From Hydrogenimonas urashimensis (GTDB lineage Bacteria; Campylobacterota; Campylobacteria; Campylobacterales; Hydrogenimonadaceae), in the NCBI RefSeq assembly GCF_016593255.1, contig NZ_AP023212.1, forward strand, positions 372,001 through 436,000: a stretch of 64,000 nt of DNA, given 5' to 3'. The position numbers and the translations under genes were made by a program. The notes under the pieces are model-generated. The model saw only the letters and a list, made by a program, of their open reading frames with translations. It ran no database searches and was not told the DNA's origin. Position 1 is the stretch's first letter. Each line of letters begins with the position of its first letter. Below, in pieces: positions 11,972 through 44,534 of the stretch.

Positions 11972-13195
11972 TTACTTCTCCTTCTCTTTTTTCCCTGCCG
12001 CAACGCTGATGGCGGCATGAATGGCGATTCCCACACCCGCGGCGGTCAAAAGCCCCAGACCGAACTGGTCGACACTCTTCTCCACTCCACCGGTGGGCGC
12101 TTTGATATTGGCGTCGGCCATGGGGCGTTCGTAGGCGTATTTGTCCCAAAATTGTGGCTCGGAACAGCCGATGCACCCGTGCCCGGCGCCGATGGGCCAG
12201 TTGGTCCCGCTGTTGTAACGGACGATGGAGCAGTTGTTGAAGGTCATAGGCCCTTTGCAGCCCATTTTGTAGAGGCACCAGTTGTTCTGCGCTCCCTCGT
12301 CACCCCACTCCTCGACGAACTCTCCCGCATCGAAGTGGGCCCGGCGTTCGCAGTTGTCATGAATACGGTATCCAAAAGCGAACTTGGGACGGTTGAGATG
12401 GTCGAGCTCTGGAATCTGTCCGGTCAAAACGAAGTGAAGAATCGTTCCCGTGATATTGGCCGGATTTGCGGGACAGGCGGGAATGTTGATGATGGGCTTG
12501 CCTTTGACGATATCCTGTACGCCCACGGCACCTGTCGGATTGGGCGAGGCGGCGGGGACGCCACCGAATGTGGCGCAGGTTCCTACCGCCACCACTGCAG
12601 CCGAATTGCCGGCCACTTTGAGCAGATGCTCTTCGAAGGTTTCCGCTTTGGCGCCGATGGTGCACCACTCTTTTCCCACTCCCACGGGAACGGAACCCTC
12701 TACCACACACAGATACTTTCCTTTGAAGGTCTTCATCGCCTCTTCAAGATGCTCTTCGGCCTGATGTCCGGCCGCCGACATCAAAGTTTCGTTGAACTCC
12801 AGGTCAATGGTCTCCAAAATCAGCTCGTCAATCGTCGGTGAGTCGGAGCGAAGAATCGCCTCGGAGTTGCCGGCACAATCTTGCAGTTCGATCCAGATGA
12901 TAGGCACCCGGTTCATCAATTCCGCCGCTTCGGCCACCAGGGGTGTGAAGGAGGCGGGCAGCATCAGCATCGCCGTGATCGCACTGGCCCACTTCATGAA
13001 ATCGCGTCGGCTGAGCCCTTCGGCGTCGAGTACCTTGTGGATATCGACTTTGGAGGCCGCCGGCGATTCCCTCAGCTGTCGTAGACGCTTTTCCATCGTT
13101 TTTTTCAATTTTTCGTAATAGGCCTCACCCCGATTGGTATTGACCCTTACCCCTTTGGCGCTGAACATTTTGGCCAATGCATCACGTCGATCCAT
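11972..13195 (-). CDS. hydA: Uptake [NiFe] hydrogenase small subunit HydA
   Basis: Iron-sulfur subunit (407 aa) that carries electrons from the active site. A twin-arginine signal SRRDFMKW at 62-69 is preceded by an unusually long 60-residue leader, as in Helicobacter HydA. A C-terminal hydrophobic helix (about 378-395) anchors it. Proximal-cluster residues are C107, C207 (GTCATFGG) and C241 (PACPANP), but the canonical fourth position in the first motif is Asn110 (DCAGN instead of CTGC). The Hyd-1-type extra Cys after GTC is Gly212, so this is not the six-cysteine oxygen-tolerant type. Medial and distal cluster cysteines are present. Confidence 0.95.
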   Translation of the reverse strand: MDRRDALAKMFSAKGVRVNTNRGEAYYEKLKKTMEKRLRQLRESPAASKVDIHKVLDAEGLSRRDFMKWASAITAMLMLPASFTPLVAEAAELMNRVPIIWIELQDCAGNSEAILRSDSPTIDELILETIDLEFNETLMSAAGHQAEEHLEEAMKTFKGKYLCVVEGSVPVGVGKEWCTIGAKAETFEEHLLKVAGNSAAVVAVGTCATFGGVPAASPNPTGAVGVQDIVKGKPIINIPACPANPANITGTILHFVLTGQIPELDHLNRPKFAFGYRIHDNCERRAHFDAGEFVEEWGDEGAQNNWCLYKMGCKGPMTFNNCSIVRYNSGTNWPIGAGHGCIGCSEPQFWDKYAYERPMADANIKAPTGGVEKSVDQFGLGLLTAAGVGIAIHAAISVAAGKKEKEK

Positions 13196-13212
13196 CTTCT
13201 ACCTCCTACGAA

Positions 13213-13226
13213 TGAATAGTCATTCA
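13213..13226 (-). promoter_or_regulatory. Palindromic operator in the hydA promoter
   Basis: On the coding strand the site reads TGAATGACTATTCA. It starts a few bases after a TAGAAT -10 candidate and ends before the AGGAGG ribosome site of hydA, so binding would overlap the transcription start. Twelve of fourteen bases match the palindrome at 4346-4359 in the same orientation relative to transcription. Confidence 0.6.
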
Positions 13227-13533
13227 CCATTCTATGGGAGCCAAATTGAAAAATGGCTTAAAAATCAGAAAATTACTAAATTTTTGATAAATTTTTTTAA
13301 ATCCTATTTAAAAAACGGACCAGGTTAAACTATGAGATAAAAGATGAGAGTTGAAAAGGTCTGCATTCAAAAAGTATATTCAGCACCCTCATCGCCACCG
13401 GCAATCTCCAACTTAAAATATCAAATCTATCCAATGCCCGATGCAAGTTTGGAAAGTAAAACTGAATGTCTTATGCCTCACACAGCACTTTTGTTACTTG
13501 ATAGACAAAATCTCTTACTTCTTACCTCTTCCC
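13227..13533. other. Intergenic region between hydA and the group-2-like hydrogenase
   Basis: I see no gene. The hydA-proximal half is AT-rich with spaced A- and T-tracts upstream of the -10 candidate, as often seen in Campylobacterota promoters. The distal half contains the purine-rich tract at 13507-13541. Confidence 0.5.
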
Positions 13534-13541
13534 TCACTTCG
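13507..13541 (-). repeat. Purine-rich GTGAGGGAAGAGGTAAGAAG tract, copy 4
   Basis: Follows and overlaps the stop codon of the group-2-like large subunit. The coding strand runs GAAGTGAGG, AAGAGGTAAG, AAGTAAGAG in succession. Similar tracts lie at 2555, 2879 and 9460. Confidence 0.45.
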
Positions 13542-14802
13542 TCGTGCAGACCGAACAGACGTCGAAAGCTTTGAAAACCAGTTCCGCCGGATCGTTACGA
13601 TGGAGCCCAATCAGCGCTTTTTGGGCAGGATAGAGGTTGTCGCGACTGCCGTTGCCCAGGTTCCACTGGGTTGGCGTTACGATGCGGTAACGGGCAATTT
13701 TTCCCTCTTCGATCTCTATTTGATGAATCAGCGAACCCCGGGCCGCTTCGACGACACCCGTGCCTTTCGCTTCTTTCGGCATGGGTCCCGGATCGATCCA
13801 GGCCGCCTGGGAGAGGTCCAGCTTCTGCAGTGTTTCATCCAGATAGCGCAGGAGCCTAGGTACTTCGCAGACGCGGGCGAGTATGCGGCTAAAAAGCGAA
13901 TCTTTGTACCGCCGGTGAGCCTCTTTGATAAGCGGTGTTTTCATGACCATCGCCCTCGCCAGTGGGCCCGTTTCGTAGGCGCGTCCCCGGTAAGCGACCA
14001 AACGTGCGGCACTTTTTTGTATCTTTTCTTCTTTCAAATAACGCAGATCCAGATGCTTTCTCATGCGGGTGGCCGTCGATTTTCCGCTTATGAAAAAACC
14101 GCTCTCTCCAAAAACGATGAAGCGATCCAGACTCTGACCCATCCGTTCCCAGCCAAGATCGAGTATCGTTCGCATCGCCTGGGGAAGGTCCCCTTTCTTA
14201 CCGAGCATCTCCTCGATACGGTCGCATCTAACAAAATAATCGAGATCCACATCGATCAGATAACGCCGAAAAATCTCTTTAAGTTGCTCCAATCGGTGTC
14301 GAAACTCCAAAAGATCCACAGGGGTGATCTCTCCCGTTATGCCTCCGGGAATCGCGTAACTGTTATGAGGGTATTGTCCTGCCAACAGGGCGATCATCTC
14401 ACCGGCGAGTCGAGAGGGTTCCAAAGCCCTCTCGATCGGTGCTTCAATGTCCAAAAGAGGCAGAATCGTCAGGTAGAACCATTTGAAATGGTTTTGCAGC
14501 AGTTCCAGGCTTAGGGTCATTTCCCTGATTTTCAGCGCTTTGTCGCTTATTTTAATGGCCTCGTAACAATCTTCCAACGCCCGAACCGTGGCGATCAGGT
14601 GCGCATGACCGCAGATGCCGCAAACCCTGGGATTGATGCTAAGCGCATCCATCGGGTCCCGCCCTTCGAGAATCTTTTCGATATGGCGACTGCTCAGAAA
14701 GCGGATTTGGGCGAAACCGATTCGCTCTCCTTCGTATTCGTAGAGAACCTGGGCTTCTCCCTCGATCTTTTCGATCAGTTCCAACCGGGTGCGGGTCGCC
14801 AT
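13534..14802 (-). CDS. Group-2-like cytoplasmic [NiFe] hydrogenase large subunit
   Basis: 422 residues. L1 is RVCGICGHAH (C61, C64). The C terminus is DVCSVCTTK: the two nickel cysteines are C416 and C419 and the protein ends exactly where other large subunits have their terminal His/Arg after processing, so no cleavable peptide is present and no protease should be needed. DPC is replaced by DVC. This ending fits H2-sensing HupV/HoxC-type and related group 2 enzymes. The start overlaps the small-subunit stop (ATGA); an open frame further upstream is the shadow of the small subunit. Sensor or low-turnover cytoplasmic uptake enzyme: undecided. Confidence 0.88.
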   Translation of the reverse strand: MATRTRLELIEKIEGEAQVLYEYEGERIGFAQIRFLSSRHIEKILEGRDPMDALSINPRVCGICGHAHLIATVRALEDCYEAIKISDKALKIREMTLSLELLQNHFKWFYLTILPLLDIEAPIERALEPSRLAGEMIALLAGQYPHNSYAIPGGITGEITPVDLLEFRHRLEQLKEIFRRYLIDVDLDYFVRCDRIEEMLGKKGDLPQAMRTILDLGWERMGQSLDRFIVFGESGFFISGKSTATRMRKHLDLRYLKEEKIQKSAARLVAYRGRAYETGPLARAMVMKTPLIKEAHRRYKDSLFSRILARVCEVPRLLRYLDETLQKLDLSQAAWIDPGPMPKEAKGTGVVEAARGSLIHQIEIEEGKIARYRIVTPTQWNLGNGSRDNLYPAQKALIGLHRNDPAELVFKAFDVCSVCTTK

Positions 14803-38555: not shown

Positions 38556-38883
38556 GGCTCTTACCTTACAATTGGAAAAGTTGATGCGATTGTACAGAAT
38601 CTGCGCTTATAACGAGGTGAGAGAAAGAGTAGAGCGCGGTTTCGAAGGTCTCGTCCACCCGCTGTCATACGAGGGTTGGACACTTCTGTTCGTAGCCAGC
38701 GGCCGATTGATGAGGATGAAGATGAGAACCTTTTTGAATACCGGGGAATCTGCAGAAATATTGCAAACAGCCCATATGATCAAGTGCCCTGCTACCCGAT
38801 CGACGTCGTAGGGCATTTACGGAAATTGTACCGTTTCATGGCAAAAGAGAATAGCCATGATACATTTCTTAATTTCCGTTTCC
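38556..38883. other. Region between glyS and the cardiolipin synthase gene; possible relic ORFs
   Basis: No gene I can support. A glyS -10 candidate (minus-strand TACAAT, 38589-38594) is present. On the plus strand two overlapping short frames (ending at 38811 and 38912) are open in succession and could be a frameshifted remnant, the second reading RPIDEDEDENLFEYRGICRN. Neither has a convincing ribosome site. Confidence 0.3.
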
Positions 38884-40254
38884 TCACATTTGTGGGGCGA
38901 AAATACGCATGACGTTTTCACCCAGCCGGCGCACCTTGGAAGCCGGTGCGAGACCATAGCTCGAATCGGCAAGGAGGCTTTGCATCCACCTCTCCGTATG
39001 GCGGATAATCGCCTCCGAATAACAGAAACTCACTACCTCGTAGTTGAGCAGCAGGCTGCGGTTGTCGAGATTGACCGACCCGAGCATCGCTCCCAGGTCG
39101 TCGAAGAGAATGGCTTTGGCGTGGAGCATATTGCCTTCATAAAGCGCCACGTCGATCCCCTCTTCCGCCAGCTCTCGCATGTAGCTGCTGCGCGCCAGGT
39201 CGGCAATGCGGTGGTTGGATTTACGGGGTGTGATGAGTTTGACATCGACTCCTTTGTGATGGGCGATACGCTGAGCCAGCATCATCGCTTCGTCGGGAAC
39301 GAAATAGGGGGTGACGATCCAGAGCCGTTTTCGAACGAAAAAGGCAGCGCTGACAATCGCTTCAAAAAGCGCGTCGCCGGGAATGTCGGGACCGGATGGA
39401 ACCACCTGCATATAGGCTTCGCCCTTCCCTTCGTTCATTGGCTCCAATGGCAGTCTCTCCCCCGTCGCGAATCGCCAATCGGCGGCGAAAACTTCCGCAT
39501 AGCGGTGTACCACGGGGCCTTCGGCGTAAAGCAGCATATCTTCCCAGCGGTTGGGCACGGGGGTGGGCCCCAGATACTCCTCGCTGAGGTTCATGCCGCC
39601 CGTCAAGACGGCGCGCTGGTCGAAAAGATAGATTTTGCGATGGTTACGAAGGTTGATGTAGTTGCTCCTGGGCGATTGGAAAATAGGCATAAAAAAGCGC
39701 ACATCCACCCCCGCTTCTTTCAAACGGCGAAGCGGCTTGCGGCGAAAATAGACCCCCCACGACCCCACCGCGTCGATCAGCAGTTTCACCGTCACTCCCG
39801 CCCGGGCCCGCTCGATCAGCAGGTCACCCAGGCGTCGCGTCACGTCGTCGTCTTTGAAGACGTAGGTGCTGATCCAGATAGTGCGCCGCGCCTCACGGAT
39901 GGCGCGCTGCAGATAGGAAAATGCCTCCACCCCGTCGAAAATGAGCCGCACTTCGTTCCCGTAGGTCGCTTCGGGGATGCCGTTGTTGCGCAAAATCCCC
40001 TCGATGGGGTTACCCGTCTGCGCAGTCGGTTTTCCGGTAGTCCGTTTGGCTTGTTTCGCCGGAATCTTGCGGGTGCCGATCACCAGATAGACGAGCGTCG
40101 CCAGGTAGGGCACCACCACCATCGCGAAAAGCCAGGCGATCATGCTCGTCGGCGACCGGCGCTGGTAGAGCATGTGCAGAAACGAAACGACGATCAATAT
40201 CTCCCAAAGGAGAAAAAAACCCGTCGCCAAAAGGGATCCGTTCACTTCGATCAT
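38884..40254 (-). CDS. cls: Cardiolipin synthase-type phospholipase D protein
   Basis: 456 residues. Two N-terminal membrane helices (about 10-28 and 37-60), then two HKD motifs: H205, K207, D212 in HRKIYLFD, and H378, K380, D385 in HAKAILFD. This architecture is that of ClsA-type cardiolipin synthases, which join two phosphatidylglycerols. Full length. The start overlaps the stop of a short JetA-like remnant by 4 bp, just downstream of mcrB. Confidence 0.9.
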   Translation of the reverse strand: MIEVNGSLLATGFFLLWEILIVVSFLHMLYQRRSPTSMIAWLFAMVVVPYLATLVYLVIGTRKIPAKQAKRTTGKPTAQTGNPIEGILRNNGIPEATYGNEVRLIFDGVEAFSYLQRAIREARRTIWISTYVFKDDDVTRRLGDLLIERARAGVTVKLLIDAVGSWGVYFRRKPLRRLKEAGVDVRFFMPIFQSPRSNYINLRNHRKIYLFDQRAVLTGGMNLSEEYLGPTPVPNRWEDMLLYAEGPVVHRYAEVFAADWRFATGERLPLEPMNEGKGEAYMQVVPSGPDIPGDALFEAIVSAAFFVRKRLWIVTPYFVPDEAMMLAQRIAHHKGVDVKLITPRKSNHRIADLARSSYMRELAEEGIDVALYEGNMLHAKAILFDDLGAMLGSVNLDNRSLLLNYEVVSFCYSEAIIRHTERWMQSLLADSSYGLAPASKVRRLGENVMRIFAPQM

Positions 40255-40361
40255 GAAAATCTCCTATCCAAACACGAAAGAATCGTCGCGAAATGGTCAC
40301 TCCCCACCAACCGCAAGGCCGGCTTGGTGCTTCGCAGGGCTATGAGGTATTCGTAGGTCAT
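40251..40361 (-). pseudogene. N-terminal remnant of a DUF3375/JetA-like (Wadjet) gene
   Basis: A 36-codon frame starts four bases after the mcrB stop and ends in a TGA overlapping the cls start. Its product begins MTYEYLIALRSTKPALRLVG and continues SDHFATILSCLDRRFS. I recall the same pattern (short helix, LR..hPA.RLL, then D/EHAPLILSFL) at the N terminus of DUF3375 proteins, which are JetA of Wadjet plasmid-defence systems and are normally around 500 residues. Nothing beyond residue 36 is kept. Assignment rests on memory of the family and needs a search. Confidence 0.5.
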
Positions 40362-40364
40362 CGG

Positions 40365-41831
40365 TTATTCGGTAGCTTCATCTGTCATCGACCCTATGAT
40401 TTCCCGCGCTTCACGCAGCCCTTCATTGTCGCCGTAGAAATACTCTTCGAGCAGTGGATCGATTTTATACTGAAGGACGAATTTGAGCTCTTCGTCACTA
40501 CTTATCGGCATGAAGTAGCTGTGACCCAGGCGGTACTCTTCGCCCAGTTGATCCGCGACGAAGTTGTTCAGTTCTTCAAAAACTTCTCTGGCTTTCTGGT
40601 GTTCTATCAATTCCGCATTCGGCGCCATCTTCAAAAAGGTGAAGCGTCGCCGCAGCGCCACGTCGATGAGGGCGATCGATTTGTCGGTGCTGTTCATCGT
40701 CCCGATGATGTAGAGGTTTTCGGGCACCGTGAAGCGCTCTTTGGAGTATGGCAGCGTCACTTCGAGCGTGCCGCGTTTGTCCTCTTCGATGAGGGTGATG
40801 AGTTCGCCGAAGATTTTGGAGATGTTGCCTCGGTTGATTTCGTCGATGACGAGGTAGTAGTTTCGCTCCGTGTCTTTTCGCGCATCATCAACGATTTCGC
40901 AAAAGACTCCTTTCGTCAACACGATTTTTCCCTCGTTATTGGGACGAAACCCTTCGACGAAATCTTCGTAACCGTAGCTTTGGTGGAATGTAACGAAACG
41001 GATACGGTTGTTTAAACTCTCATCGAAATCGGGCAAATCGTAATGATCGTTCGAAGTGATAATATCGAAAATTTCCCACTCGGACTTGCCCTCTTCGATG
41101 AGTTGGATGAGTTGTTTGATGTTGTGGGTTTTGCCGACGCCGGGAGGGCCATAAAGTATGATGTTATTAATATAATTTAACTTGTTTTTTTGAATAAAAT
41201 AATGTTTTCCGTTTCTCTCAAAATCATTATTATCTTTATTTTCTAAAGTAAAAAAATTTATATTTTTTTCACCAAAAATATCGACAAGCCTCCTTTTTAT
41301 TTGCTCAACCGTTAAATCAGATGACTGATCTATTGCATCTTTGTATATTGCTTTAACTGGATATTGACTGGCATCTTGATTGATTGAAAAATACCATTTG
41401 ACCGATAATGGAACATCAAAATCGTTGGGATTTTCACGAAATTTTTTCATGCTATTTTTAATTTTATTTTTATTAGTTGATATATTTTCGTAATATTTCT
41501 CATGTTCTTCGAGAGATTTTTTCGCATTTTCACAATAATTTTCATCAAAATCATTACAAATAGATTCAATGAAATATTTTTTTGCATCATTATTTATTGT
41601 TTGTGTAAATTTTTCGCCTTTTAACATATAAATTAAATTATTCAAATAAATTTTCAAACTTGATTCATTCCAATTGTGATCGCTATCTTTTTTTACAGTT
41701 TCTTTTATTTTATCAACAATATGTGCTTGTGTTTTAGTGTTTATGACATTTATTCCATTTTCTTCAATATAATTTTTAAATTTTTCATATACGTCTTTTA
41801 TGTGATTTTCTGTAATACTATTTTTCATCAA
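40365..41831 (-). CDS. mcrB: McrB-like restriction GTPase with AT-rich specificity domain
   Basis: 488 residues. The AAA+ GTPase core is clear: P-loop GPPGVGKT at 228-235, Walker B YLVIDE at 326-331, NRGNISK, and MNSTDKS at 379-385, a McrB signature. Residues 1-223 are a separate, Lys/Asn-rich domain without visible similarity to the E. coli McrB DNA-binding domain; YPVKAIYKDAI near 157-167 hints at the ScoMcrA-head-like type. DNA for residues 1-223 is strongly AT-rich while the core matches the genome. McrB translocates on modified DNA and drives McrC cleavage. It follows mcrC, overlapping by 14 bp. Confidence 0.88.
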   Translation of the reverse strand: MMKNSITENHIKDVYEKFKNYIEENGINVINTKTQAHIVDKIKETVKKDSDHNWNESSLKIYLNNLIYMLKGEKFTQTINNDAKKYFIESICNDFDENYCENAKKSLEEHEKYYENISTNKNKIKNSMKKFRENPNDFDVPLSVKWYFSINQDASQYPVKAIYKDAIDQSSDLTVEQIKRRLVDIFGEKNINFFTLENKDNNDFERNGKHYFIQKNKLNYINNIILYGPPGVGKTHNIKQLIQLIEEGKSEWEIFDIITSNDHYDLPDFDESLNNRIRFVTFHQSYGYEDFVEGFRPNNEGKIVLTKGVFCEIVDDARKDTERNYYLVIDEINRGNISKIFGELITLIEEDKRGTLEVTLPYSKERFTVPENLYIIGTMNSTDKSIALIDVALRRRFTFLKMAPNAELIEHQKAREVFEELNNFVADQLGEEYRLGHSYFMPISSDEELKFVLQYKIDPLLEEYFYGDNEGLREAREIIGSMTDEATE

Positions 41832-42942
41832 GCATATCCTTTAAATTATTTTTGATATTTTTCATAAATTCATTGGAAGCATATCCTAACTCCAAACTCC
41901 GCATCCTCAATCTTACCACGTTCTCCCCTTCCCCCAGAACCAAATCTTCCCGCACATCGACACGATGTTTGGGGTAGAGCAGCATGACATCTTTTATGCC
42001 GAAGTTGATGCCGTAGGCGAACATCTGGTATTTGTCCTGGGTGGCGAGGTCGTCGCGGTTGGCGATGCTTTTGTATTTGGTGTCGATGATGAGACGGTCG
42101 GTGAGGATGTCGGGTTTGAGCTGGAGGTTGCCGAAGTTGCGCTGCACCTGCAGGCGTGCGGTGGAGTCGATCTCCTGAACGAGTCGCCCGACGAAGGCTT
42201 CGAAGACCTCTCCCATATCGAACAAAAAAGCGAAGCTTCGCTCCTCTTTGGTGGAGGGGAGCGGCACGAGCCTGTCGAGGATCATTTTGGCGATGGTGTA
42301 GCTTTTTTCGAAGCGGCGGTTCAATCGGTCGAAACGGACGGCATGGCGGCGATGGTCGATGCGCTGGCGGGTCACTTCGTCGAAGATCGCTTCGCAGCGT
42401 CGCAGGGTGGCATCGTGGCTGAATCGTCGAAAAATGTCGATGGCATAAAGAAAGAAACGGTTGAGCGGATTGTCCATGCTGAATTCGTCATATTCACAGT
42501 GGAGGTTCTGGTGGTGGAAGTGGCGGAAATTCTTTTCGAAAAGGTATTTGCCCCGCAGCACTTTCAGGTCTTCTCTTTTCGTCACGTAGCTTCGGAAAAC
42601 TCCCCGTTTGAGCTCTTCGAAGAGCCCCGTGGCGAAGAGTCGGATGAAAAGCTCCAGAATATCGTGCTTTTGATTTTGGGCTTCGAAGAGGTCTTCGTTT
42701 CGTAGATCGACCCCTTGGGCGTAGAGCAGCATCGTGATGAAAATGTCGAGGTTGTCGGTCGCTTCGTCGGCGATTTTGGGGACGATGAAATAGCTCTTTC
42801 CCTCCAGTTGCAGAAAACCGCAGTAGTTGTCGGGCACGACCCCTGCGAAGCTGTTTTTGAAATAGGGTTGCAAAGCCGGAGTGCGGCGTATCGTTTCGGC
42901 CAGCTCTTTCGGAACGGGCCGATTTTCCGTTAGATATTCCAT
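41818..42942 (-). CDS. mcrC: McrC-like restriction endonuclease subunit
   Basis: 374 residues. The N-terminal region is the McrB-contacting domain of the McrC family (FAGVVPDNYCGFLQLEG, FIVPKI near 52). The C-terminal nuclease has PD-(D/E)xK residues D278, D287 and K289 in LKPDIL and LIIDTKYK. No truncation. It is the first gene of the pair, opposite to the usual mcrB-mcrC order. The last 20 or so codons fall into AT-rich DNA that continues into mcrB. Confidence 0.9.
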   Translation of the reverse strand: MEYLTENRPVPKELAETIRRTPALQPYFKNSFAGVVPDNYCGFLQLEGKSYFIVPKIADEATDNLDIFITMLLYAQGVDLRNEDLFEAQNQKHDILELFIRLFATGLFEELKRGVFRSYVTKREDLKVLRGKYLFEKNFRHFHHQNLHCEYDEFSMDNPLNRFFLYAIDIFRRFSHDATLRRCEAIFDEVTRQRIDHRRHAVRFDRLNRRFEKSYTIAKMILDRLVPLPSTKEERSFAFLFDMGEVFEAFVGRLVQEIDSTARLQVQRNFGNLQLKPDILTDRLIIDTKYKSIANRDDLATQDKYQMFAYGINFGIKDVMLLYPKHRVDVREDLVLGEGENVVRLRMRSLELGYASNEFMKNIKNNLKDMLDEK

Positions 42943-42981
42943 GACATGATCGTCTTTTTACCACTCCAATTCTATCTTCAC

Positions 42982-43001
42982 TTTTGCATTTTCATGCAAA
43001 A
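42982..43001 (-). promoter_or_regulatory. Perfect 8-bp inverted repeat upstream of mcrC
   Basis: TTTTGCAT-TTTC-ATGCAAAA lies about 40 bp before the mcrC ATG, directly upstream of a TAGAAT -10 candidate. It could be an operator for a restriction controller or a weak hairpin at the end of the nuo operon; no T-run follows on either strand. Confidence 0.45.
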
Positions 43002-43052
43002 ACGTCCAACGATTCAGCTTTGCGCTCCACACTCCCTGCTTTGCATCCGGTT

Positions 43053-44534
43053 TCAAAGCGAGCCAATCGCCTGTTTCGCGATATCGATGAGTCCGTCGGC
43101 TCCAGGGAAGAAGGGGATAAGGCCCGTTCCGATGCCGCCCCAGATGGCCATGAGCGCCATCATTGTAATCAACAACGTACTCATACCGAATCGAAACGGT
43201 TCTCTTTTCGATTCGGTTTCGTAGAAATACATCACGGCGATGAGCTTGAAATAGTAGTAGACCGAAACGAAGGCGATGAAGATGCCAAGACCTGCAAGCA
43301 GAAACTGCCGCGACTCGATGGCGCTGGTGAAGATATAGAATTTGCCCAGAAACCCGATGGTCGACGGAAAACCCGAAAGCGAGAGCATGAAAATCGCCAT
43401 CATCGCGGCCAGATAGGGGCGTTTTTGGGCGAACCCTTTGAAATCGTCGTAGGTCAGCGGTCTTTTGGCGTCGGCGGCGATGTAGCTGAGTATGCCAAAC
43501 GCCCCCACCGAGGAGATGAAATAGGAGAGCAGGTAGAACATGATGGCCGGTGCCGCCAACTGCGACCCAAGGCCGATGGACGAGAGGGCGATGAGCATGT
43601 AGCCGCCGTGGACGATGCTCGAGCCCGCCAGCATCCGTTTGAGAATGGATTGCGACAGCGCCAGCCATGAGCCTCCGAGCAGCGTGAGAATCGTGAGGAC
43701 GGTGAGTATTTCGCTGCCGTGCAGGCCACTGAGGGCAAAATATGCCAAGTAGATGCGCAACGCCACGGCGAAGAGCGCAATTTTGAAAGTCGATGCCATG
43801 AACATCGTGACCGGAAACGGCGAACCGTGGTAGACGTCGAGCACCCAGGCGTGAAAGGGAACGGCACCGATTTTGAAAAGGATTGTCACAAACAGCAGCA
43901 TGCCGGCGACTGTCAACGCTAGCGTGTAATGACTCCCCTGCTGCTGGACAAAGGTACCGATTTCAGTGATGACGGTGGTTCCTGTCACCCCGTAGATGAT
44001 GGCGGCTCCCAGTATGAACATCGCCCCCGCCAATGAGCCAAGTACCAGATATTTGAACATCGCCTCGCCGCTGAGCGGATTGTTTTTGTGATATCCCACC
44101 AGCGCATAAATGCTCAATGAGGCCAGTTCCAGGCCGATGAATGCGGTCACCAGGTCGTTGGCATGGGCAAGCGTCATCATGCCGAAAATGCTGAAGAGAA
44201 AGAGTGCAAAAAATTCGCCGTTGTAGTATTTCCGCTTCTCAAGATAGACGCTGTTGATAAGAAGGGTCAATATGGCGCCTGCTAAAAACATCAGGTCAAA
44301 AAGCGTCGAGAAATCGTCGATGAGATACATCTTTCCGAAAATGTCAGGGAATGCGTAGCGTGCCGGCCCGTTTCCGAATTGCGGCAGTTCGATGACGAAC
44401 GAGACGGCGAGAAACGCTACGGCAACGGCCAGGTAGCGCCTCAGACCGATGGTTTTGACGGTACTGAGCATCAGAAGCACGAAGGCGCCCACGACAGTCA
44501 GTGCCATTGGCAGTACAAGAAGCGTCTGTTCCAT
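43053..44534 (-). CDS. nuoN: NADH-quinone oxidoreductase subunit N
   Basis: 493 residues, about 14 transmembrane helices; antiporter-like proton-pumping subunit next to NuoK. Conserved elements include the glutamate in LELASLSIYALVGY near 137 and the lysine in LFKIGAVPFHAWVLD near 221. The ATG shares one base with the nuoM stop. Last gene of the complex I operon. Confidence 0.95.
   Translation of the reverse strand: MEQTLLVLPMALTVVGAFVLLMLSTVKTIGLRRYLAVAVAFLAVSFVIELPQFGNGPARYAFPDIFGKMYLIDDFSTLFDLMFLAGAILTLLINSVYLEKRKYYNGEFFALFLFSIFGMMTLAHANDLVTAFIGLELASLSIYALVGYHKNNPLSGEAMFKYLVLGSLAGAMFILGAAIIYGVTGTTVITEIGTFVQQQGSHYTLALTVAGMLLFVTILFKIGAVPFHAWVLDVYHGSPFPVTMFMASTFKIALFAVALRIYLAYFALSGLHGSEILTVLTILTLLGGSWLALSQSILKRMLAGSSIVHGGYMLIALSSIGLGSQLAAPAIMFYLLSYFISSVGAFGILSYIAADAKRPLTYDDFKGFAQKRPYLAAMMAIFMLSLSGFPSTIGFLGKFYIFTSAIESRQFLLAGLGIFIAFVSVYYYFKLIAVMYFYETESKREPFRFGMSTLLITMMALMAIWGGIGTGLIPFFPGADGLIDIAKQAIGSL

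What the first reader, a model, noticed from the sequence alone, without database searches (positions are those of the whole stretch)
41161..41885. AT-rich specificity cassette swapped into mcrCB
G+C drops from 30/60 in 41101-41160 to 11/60 in 41581-41640. The left edge falls four residues before the McrB P-loop; the right edge lies in the last 20 or so codons of mcrC. The cassette thus holds exactly the McrB target-recognition domain plus the gene junction, flanked by host-like conserved sequence, ideal for exchange by homologous recombination.
Basis: partly seen in the sequence, partly recalled or inferred. Interest (0 to 1): 0.68.

Follow-up and report, generated by a model that had tools for sequence, protein, structure and literature searches.

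The report
Swapped recognition cassette in McrBC
A bacterial enzyme pair that destroys foreign DNA has had only its presumed target-sensing part replaced by an AT-rich piece from another lineage, at the same two joints where dozens of related bacteria also swap that part, so this defence seems to change what it recognises by exchanging one cassette.

Summary
Genes mcrC (42942-41818, -) and mcrB (41828-40365, -) carry a block at 22.5% G+C between flanks at 53% and 49%. Maximum-likelihood edges are 41151 (support 41149-41164), at the McrB P-loop, and 41874 (41868-41898), in the last codons of mcrC. Host 700-bp windows average 53% (SD 5%).

Among 46 Campylobacterota loci with the mcrC-mcrB order, 38 pairs have McrC at least 75% identical; in 32 the McrB N-domains are unrelated. 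Identity jumps from about 12% to about 100% at 6-8 residues before the P-loop, where the window's G+C edge lies. N-domain type shows no phylogenetic signal on the McrC tree (32 changes; shuffled mean 32.8). McrC and AAA agree on the window's relatives (L057, L058, L060, L062), none with its N-domain. N-domain GC3 barely follows the flanks (slope 0.20, against 0.91 in mcrB-mcrC outgroups), as if drawn from an AT-rich pool.

Not shown: donor, recombination mechanism, what the domain binds. Recognition-domain exchange is known for Type I systems and one Campylobacter jejuni McrB pair is published, so this is a new variant of a known kind.

The parts
41818..42942 (-). mcrC, PD-(D/E)xK nuclease subunit, 374 aa; codons 1 to about 342-351 have host-like codon usage
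   Evidence: PF10117 E 8.9e-58; P277-D278...D287-x-K289 invariant in the alignment; codon log-ratio +1.08 per codon
41818..41886 (-). last 23 codons of mcrC, after the conserved RSLEL motif (41901-41887): AT-rich, inside the cassette
   Evidence: 24% G+C; codon log-ratio -0.60; relatives' McrC identity decays after this motif
41151..41874 (-). exchanged AT-rich cassette, maximum-likelihood extent
   Evidence: two-change-point fit, support 41149-41164 and 41868-41898; edges coincide with identity breaks in relatives
40365..41828 (-). mcrB, 487 aa, motor GTPase subunit with N-terminal cassette; start overlaps the end of mcrC by 11 bp
   Evidence: AAA_5 E 2e-18; McrB model NF008457 E 5e-48 over residues 196-468, below its cut-off
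41427..41828 (-). module M1 (McrB residues about 1-134), helical, first half of the N-domain
   Evidence: 37-50% identity to N-domains of L037, L042, L048, L064, L075, L081, L090, L097; helical model, pLDDT above 90 in much of residues 10-110
41196..41432 (-). module M2 (residues about 133-211), second half of the N-domain, motif YPVKAI
   Evidence: same module in L087 behind a different first module, E 3e-7; weak in L064 (E 0.05) and L042 (not significant)
40365..41168 (-). AAA+ GTPase domain from NNIILYG, host-like composition, without the 102-141-aa insert that most relatives carry before Walker B
   Evidence: GC3 0.63; insert comparison; identity among close pairs restarts here

Best explanation
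The block is a replaced specificity cassette of a Type IV McrBC system. The operon encodes a nuclease (McrC) and a motor GTPase (McrB AAA domain) that are inherited together. The N-terminal part of McrB, which by analogy with E. coli McrB-N senses the target DNA, is exchanged as one piece running from the last codons of mcrC to the codons just before the P-loop. The present cassette (modules M1+M2) came from an AT-rich source recently enough that its codons have not adapted. Shown: the compositional mosaic and its edges, matching edges in relatives, conflict of N-domain type with both flanking trees, and near-independence of N-domain GC3 from flank GC3. Inferred: that the cassette sets recognition, that exchange uses homologous recombination in the conserved flanks, and that phage DNA modification drives it.
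For: Sharp synonymous composition step at both edges, unusual for the genome. 32 of 38 close pairs have unrelated N-domains, and identity restarts at -8 to -6 residues before the P-loop. Pairs that share an N-domain at the same McrC distance keep it 63-68% identical (L104, L105, L106), so drift cannot erase it. N-domain type needs 32 changes on the McrC tree (shuffled mean 32.8) and 31 on the AAA tree (32.7); M1 needs 8 changes for 8 rows. Both trees group the window with L057, L058, L060 and L062, none with M1. N-domain GC3 against flank GC3: slope 0.20 in 47 mcrC-mcrB loci, 0.91 in 19 outgroup loci.
Against: No donor sequence is known; the best N-domain match is 49.6% identical. The window's flank DNA is too far from any relative to show a recombination tract. 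M1 and M2 have no match to a known DNA-binding fold. Some mcrC-mcrB loci (L037, L048, L064) carry M1 as well, so M1 alone could be older in this lineage than the composition suggests.
Confidence: 0.85

Rival explanations
1. The N-domain is inherited vertically and is AT-rich for an intrinsic reason, such as amino-acid content or selection for AT-rich DNA around the mcrC-mcrB junction.
For: N-domains are AT-rich relative to their own operon in 41 of 47 related loci, so part of the bias is general to the slot.
Against: The bias survives conditioning on amino acids; N-domains of close relatives are unrelated, not merely diverged; outgroup N-domains follow their flanks.
Confidence: 0.06
2. The N-domain was added by insertion or gene fusion to a short McrB, not exchanged for an earlier N-domain.
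For: N-domain lengths differ widely (54-342 aa), and whole genes can enter the same junction (DUF1016-like gene in four loci).
Against: All 46 relatives compared have some N-terminal extension before the P-loop, and the AT-rich block includes the end of mcrC, which relatives also have; replacement of an existing segment explains both.
Confidence: 0.07
3. The whole mcrCB operon came from an AT-rich donor and only part of it has adapted to the host.
For: The operon is accessory: the nearest relative lacks it, and most relatives are AT-rich throughout.
Against: Adaptation does not stop at a P-loop codon; McrC and AAA have GC3 0.68-0.71 and 0.63 like host genes (0.65-0.72), the N-domain 0.17.
Confidence: 0.01
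4. Assembly chimaera.
For: An abrupt composition change can arise from misassembly.
Against: Single-contig genome; both ORFs run in frame across both edges; the same M1-AAA architecture with mcrC upstream occurs in independent genomes.
Confidence: 0.01

Closest known systems
E. coli K-12 McrBC (Type IV, modified-cytosine dependent)
   Same: McrB with N-terminal recognition domain plus AAA+ GTPase, and McrC PD-(D/E)xK nuclease, in one operon.
   Different: Gene order is mcrB-mcrC; its N-domain (DUF3578/ADAM) is unrelated to M1-M2, and the window's target is unknown.
Campylobacter jejuni CAMSA2038 / CAMSA2002 mcrB pair (PMC8713573)
   Same: Same locus in two strains with GTPase part about 95% similar and divergent N-terminus; deletion of mcrB in CAMSA2038 relieved phage resistance; a further conserved patch at the start of the GTPase domain was noted.
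   Different: One pair, with one allele a pseudogene; larger McrB (784 aa); no edges, trees or composition analysis. I did not compare its sequences directly.
Type I hsdS recognition-domain exchange and DOMO (PMC3077401)
   Same: Recognition domains replaced between conserved flanks while the rest of the system stays.
   Different: Two recognition domains between conserved or repeated sequences in a specificity subunit of a protecting system; here a modification-dependent type with motor fused to the domain. Module relocation is only hinted at here.
McrBC census with CoCoNuTs (PMC11090510)
   Same: States that canonical McrB homologues carry small modular specificity domains and that GTPase domains often hold insertions likely to encode specificity domains.
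   Different: A term search of the paper found no mention of Campylobacter, exchange, recombination or swap; the passages read do not map joints or turnover.

Membership tests
McrBC Type IV restriction system | McrB AAA+ GTPase with Walker A, Walker B and the MNxxD signature | tested here: met
   GPPGVGKT, VIDEINRG and MNSTDKS in P0001; AAA_5 E 2e-18; McrB model E 5e-48 below its curated cut-off
McrBC Type IV restriction system | McrC with PD-(D/E)xK nuclease, adjacent in the operon | tested here: met
   PF10117 E 8.9e-58; PD...DTK residues invariant; genes overlap by 11 bp
McrBC Type IV restriction system | N-terminal domain that binds modified DNA | tested here: inconclusive
   A separate N-domain is present, but no known recognition domain matches; binding not tested
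McrBC Type IV restriction system | GTP-dependent cleavage of modified DNA | not testable with these tools
   needs biochemistry
Recognition-domain exchange (as in Type I hsdS) | Conserved flanks with unrelated recognition domains in close relatives | tested here: met
   32 of 38 pairs with McrC at least 75% identical
Recognition-domain exchange (as in Type I hsdS) | Recognition-domain type in conflict with the tree of the flanks | tested here: met
   32 changes against 32.8 in shuffles on the McrC tree, 31 against 32.7 on the AAA tree
Recognition-domain exchange (as in Type I hsdS) | Identified donor or recombination tract | tested here: not met
   no close donor found; flank DNA too diverged in the window's case
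DOMO (domain movement within a gene) | The same module found at different positions in the protein | tested here: inconclusive
   M1 is first in most loci but second in L042; the M2-like part of L042 does not reach significance (E 0.25-0.7)

The most novel reading that the evidence does not exclude
Campylobacterota mcrC-mcrB systems are a combinatorial defence platform with two exchangeable slots (the N-terminal cassette and a 102-141-aa insert before Walker B of the GTPase), filled from a phylum-wide AT-rich pool of small DNA-sensing modules that turns over so fast that module type carries almost no trace of the ancestry of nuclease and motor. M1 and M2 would be new classes of modification-sensing domain.
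Probability: 0.45. Interest if true: 0.75.

Novelty: new variant of a known kind. Interest (0 to 1): 0.6.

Why it matters
If the cassette sets recognition, one operon can be re-aimed at new phage DNA modifications by exchanging about 0.7 kb while keeping its motor and nuclease, and nature has already made dozens of matched chimaeras. The fixed joints make it directly testable which module reads which modification, by swapping N-domains at (K/N)NIILYG in a laboratory host. It also extends recognition-domain shuffling, documented for Type I systems, to a modification-dependent motor system with statistics across a phylum.

Tried and rejected
Amino-acid content as cause of the AT block: rejected by codon-conditioned tests. 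Vertical inheritance: rejected by pairs and trees. Phage carriage of the cassette: no match in viral contigs or phage records; two plasmid matches only. Donor search: the M1 profile found four other genomes among 397 of the phylum, none close. Fold of M1: no PDB match. Weak sequence similarity of M1 to the yeast glutaminyl-tRNA synthetase N-terminal domain fell from E 8e-6 to 2.5e-4 when more rows were added, so it is only a lead. Fold of M2: low-confidence model, no match. AAA insert homologous to N-modules: one marginal match only, E 0.005. M1 tree: unresolved. G+C change points in other loci are only partly informative because most hosts are AT-rich throughout; the P-loop edge was nevertheless recovered at -1 to -14 bp in about ten loci. 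The first codon log-ratio run used two reference genes out of frame and was replaced.

Full report
What is there. On the minus strand the window holds mcrC (42942-41818) followed by mcrB (41828-40365), overlapping by 11 bp. McrC matches PF10117 (E 8.9e-58) and keeps its PD...DxK residues; McrB has an AAA_5 domain with Walker A, Walker B and the MNxxD signature. It is the only match of either protein in the 2.30-Mb single-contig genome, which by its relatives belongs to the Campylobacterales. The first 219 residues of McrB match no Pfam, PADLOC or NCBIfam family credibly.

The observation. Two change points fit best at 41151 (support 41149-41164) and 41874 (41868-41898), with G+C 49% / 22.5% / 53%. 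In 400 kb of the same genome, 700-bp windows average 53.1% with SD 5.0%. The contrast sits in synonymous positions: GC3 0.71 (McrC 1-350), 0.17 (McrB 1-219), 0.63 (AAA). A codon test conditioned on amino acids gives similar edges, 41166 and 41917. An earlier version of that test read two reference genes out of frame and was replaced.

Relatives. One scan of genome contigs (84,980 species) with a McrC alignment gave 80 loci; L057 to L113 are mostly Campylobacterota with the same mcrC-mcrB order, and L114 onward are outgroups, with mcrB first where both genes were found. With L037 and L048 from the genome search, 46 mcrC-mcrB loci including the window were compared. N-domains are built from small modules, and most are unrelated between loci.

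Close pairs. Of 38 pairs with McrC at least 75% identical, 32 have N-domains with no detectable similarity. Examples: L107/L106, McrC 87% and AAA 90%; L105/L107, McrC 91%; L057/L062, McrC 85% and AAA 83%. Where pairs share an N-domain at the same McrC distance (L104, L105, L106), it is still 63-68% identical, so drift cannot explain the loss of similarity. Across the joints, identity jumps from 0.12 (residues -12 to -9) to 0.97 (-4 to -1) before the P-loop, and falls from 0.82 at the McrC RSxDL motif to 0.27-0.49 beyond it. These are the places of the window's composition edges, found independently.

Trees. On the McrC tree N-domain types need 32 changes, against a shuffled mean of 32.8; module M1 occurs in eight rows and needs eight changes. 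On the AAA-core tree it is 31 against 32.7. Both trees place the window in a well-supported group with L057, L058, L060 and L062, none of which has M1; the best N-domain matches are L075, L090 and L081 (48.7-49.6% identity). Type labels were assigned from BLAST clusters and by eye; the pair statistic does not depend on them. The window's own branch is long in both trees, so its exact place within the group is unsure. The M1 tree itself is unresolved.

An AT-rich pool. Across 47 mcrC-mcrB loci the N-domain's synonymous GC3 is lower than expected from its own operon in 41 (Wilcoxon p 2e-9). N-domain GC3 barely follows flank GC3 (slope 0.20, r 0.49), while in 19 outgroup loci it follows closely (slope 0.91, r 0.98). 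The loci are not phylogenetically independent, so the p value overstates certainty; the slope contrast is the more telling result. The window is the extreme case because its flanks are the most GC-rich of the set.

A second slot. An insert of 102-141 aa lies before Walker B in 32 of 46 loci and is absent in 14, the window included. Presence changes 12 times on the McrC tree, as often as in shuffles. It too is AT-rich in GC-richer hosts. L105 and L106 share the N-domain type but differ in insert; L106 and L107 share the insert type but differ in N-domain. N-domains are longer where the insert is absent (p 0.003). Bell et al. (PMC11090510) noted such GTPase insertions and proposed that they encode specificity domains.

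Modules. M1 is a confidently modelled helical domain with no fold match. M2 recurs in L087 behind another first module (E 3e-7); the reversed order suggested by L042 is not statistically supported.

Setting. In the nearest relative with this nuo cluster (G004), nuoN and glyS are about 0.8 kb apart, without cls or mcrCB. The operon is accessory, so the swap may have happened before it reached this host. An M1-bearing mcrCB lies on the Sulfurospirillum diekertiae plasmid pSDCE1.

Mechanism and limits. Best reading: recognition cassettes are exchanged between mcrCB operons at two conserved joints. Homologous recombination is plausible, since close pairs average 86% (up to 95%) DNA identity over -18 to +45 bp of the P-loop with exact runs up to 41 bp, but the window's own nearest relatives are too distant to show it. 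No donor was found. That the domain reads modified DNA follows from E. coli McrB-N by position, not from a test here.

Known background. Recognition-domain exchange is established for Type I specificity genes (PMC3077401), and one C. jejuni McrB pair with conserved GTPase and divergent N-terminus is published with phage-restriction data (PMC8713573). New here, as far as the open-access papers searched show, are the mapped joints, the near-absence of phylogenetic signal across a phylum, and the composition evidence for a common AT-rich pool.

Noticed in passing
L057-L109, McrB AAA domain before Walker B: A second variable slot: an insert of 102-141 aa, present or absent without regard to the tree and of several unrelated types; AT-rich in GC-richer hosts.
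   Followed up: partly
L070, L088, L093, L096, between mcrC and mcrB: A 330-aa gene that I take for a DUF1016/YhcG-like nuclease (recognised by eye, not searched) sits exactly in the mcrC-mcrB junction.
   Followed up: no
38556-43056: cls plus mcrCB (4.5 kb) is extra relative to the nuoN-glyS interval of G004, which holds an unrelated 182-aa ORF instead.
   Followed up: partly
L172 and L173 (Sulfurospirillum diekertiae plasmids pSDCE1 and pSDIE1): Two related plasmids carry an M1-bearing mcrCB; the pSDIE1 copy is annotated as several short pieces and looks broken.
   Followed up: no
L163 10431-16100 (G000:C1 about 1,390,431-1,396,100): An AT-rich island (31% G+C) elsewhere in the same genome, a candidate for recently acquired DNA.
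   Followed up: no
13061-13580: The only other AT-rich stretch in the window; it is intergenic, upstream of what looks like a [NiFe]-hydrogenase operon.
   Followed up: partly
41427-41828: M1 shows weak profile similarity to the N-terminal domain of yeast glutaminyl-tRNA synthetase (PDB 3tl4), an appended RNA-binding region by general knowledge; too weak to claim.
   Followed up: partly
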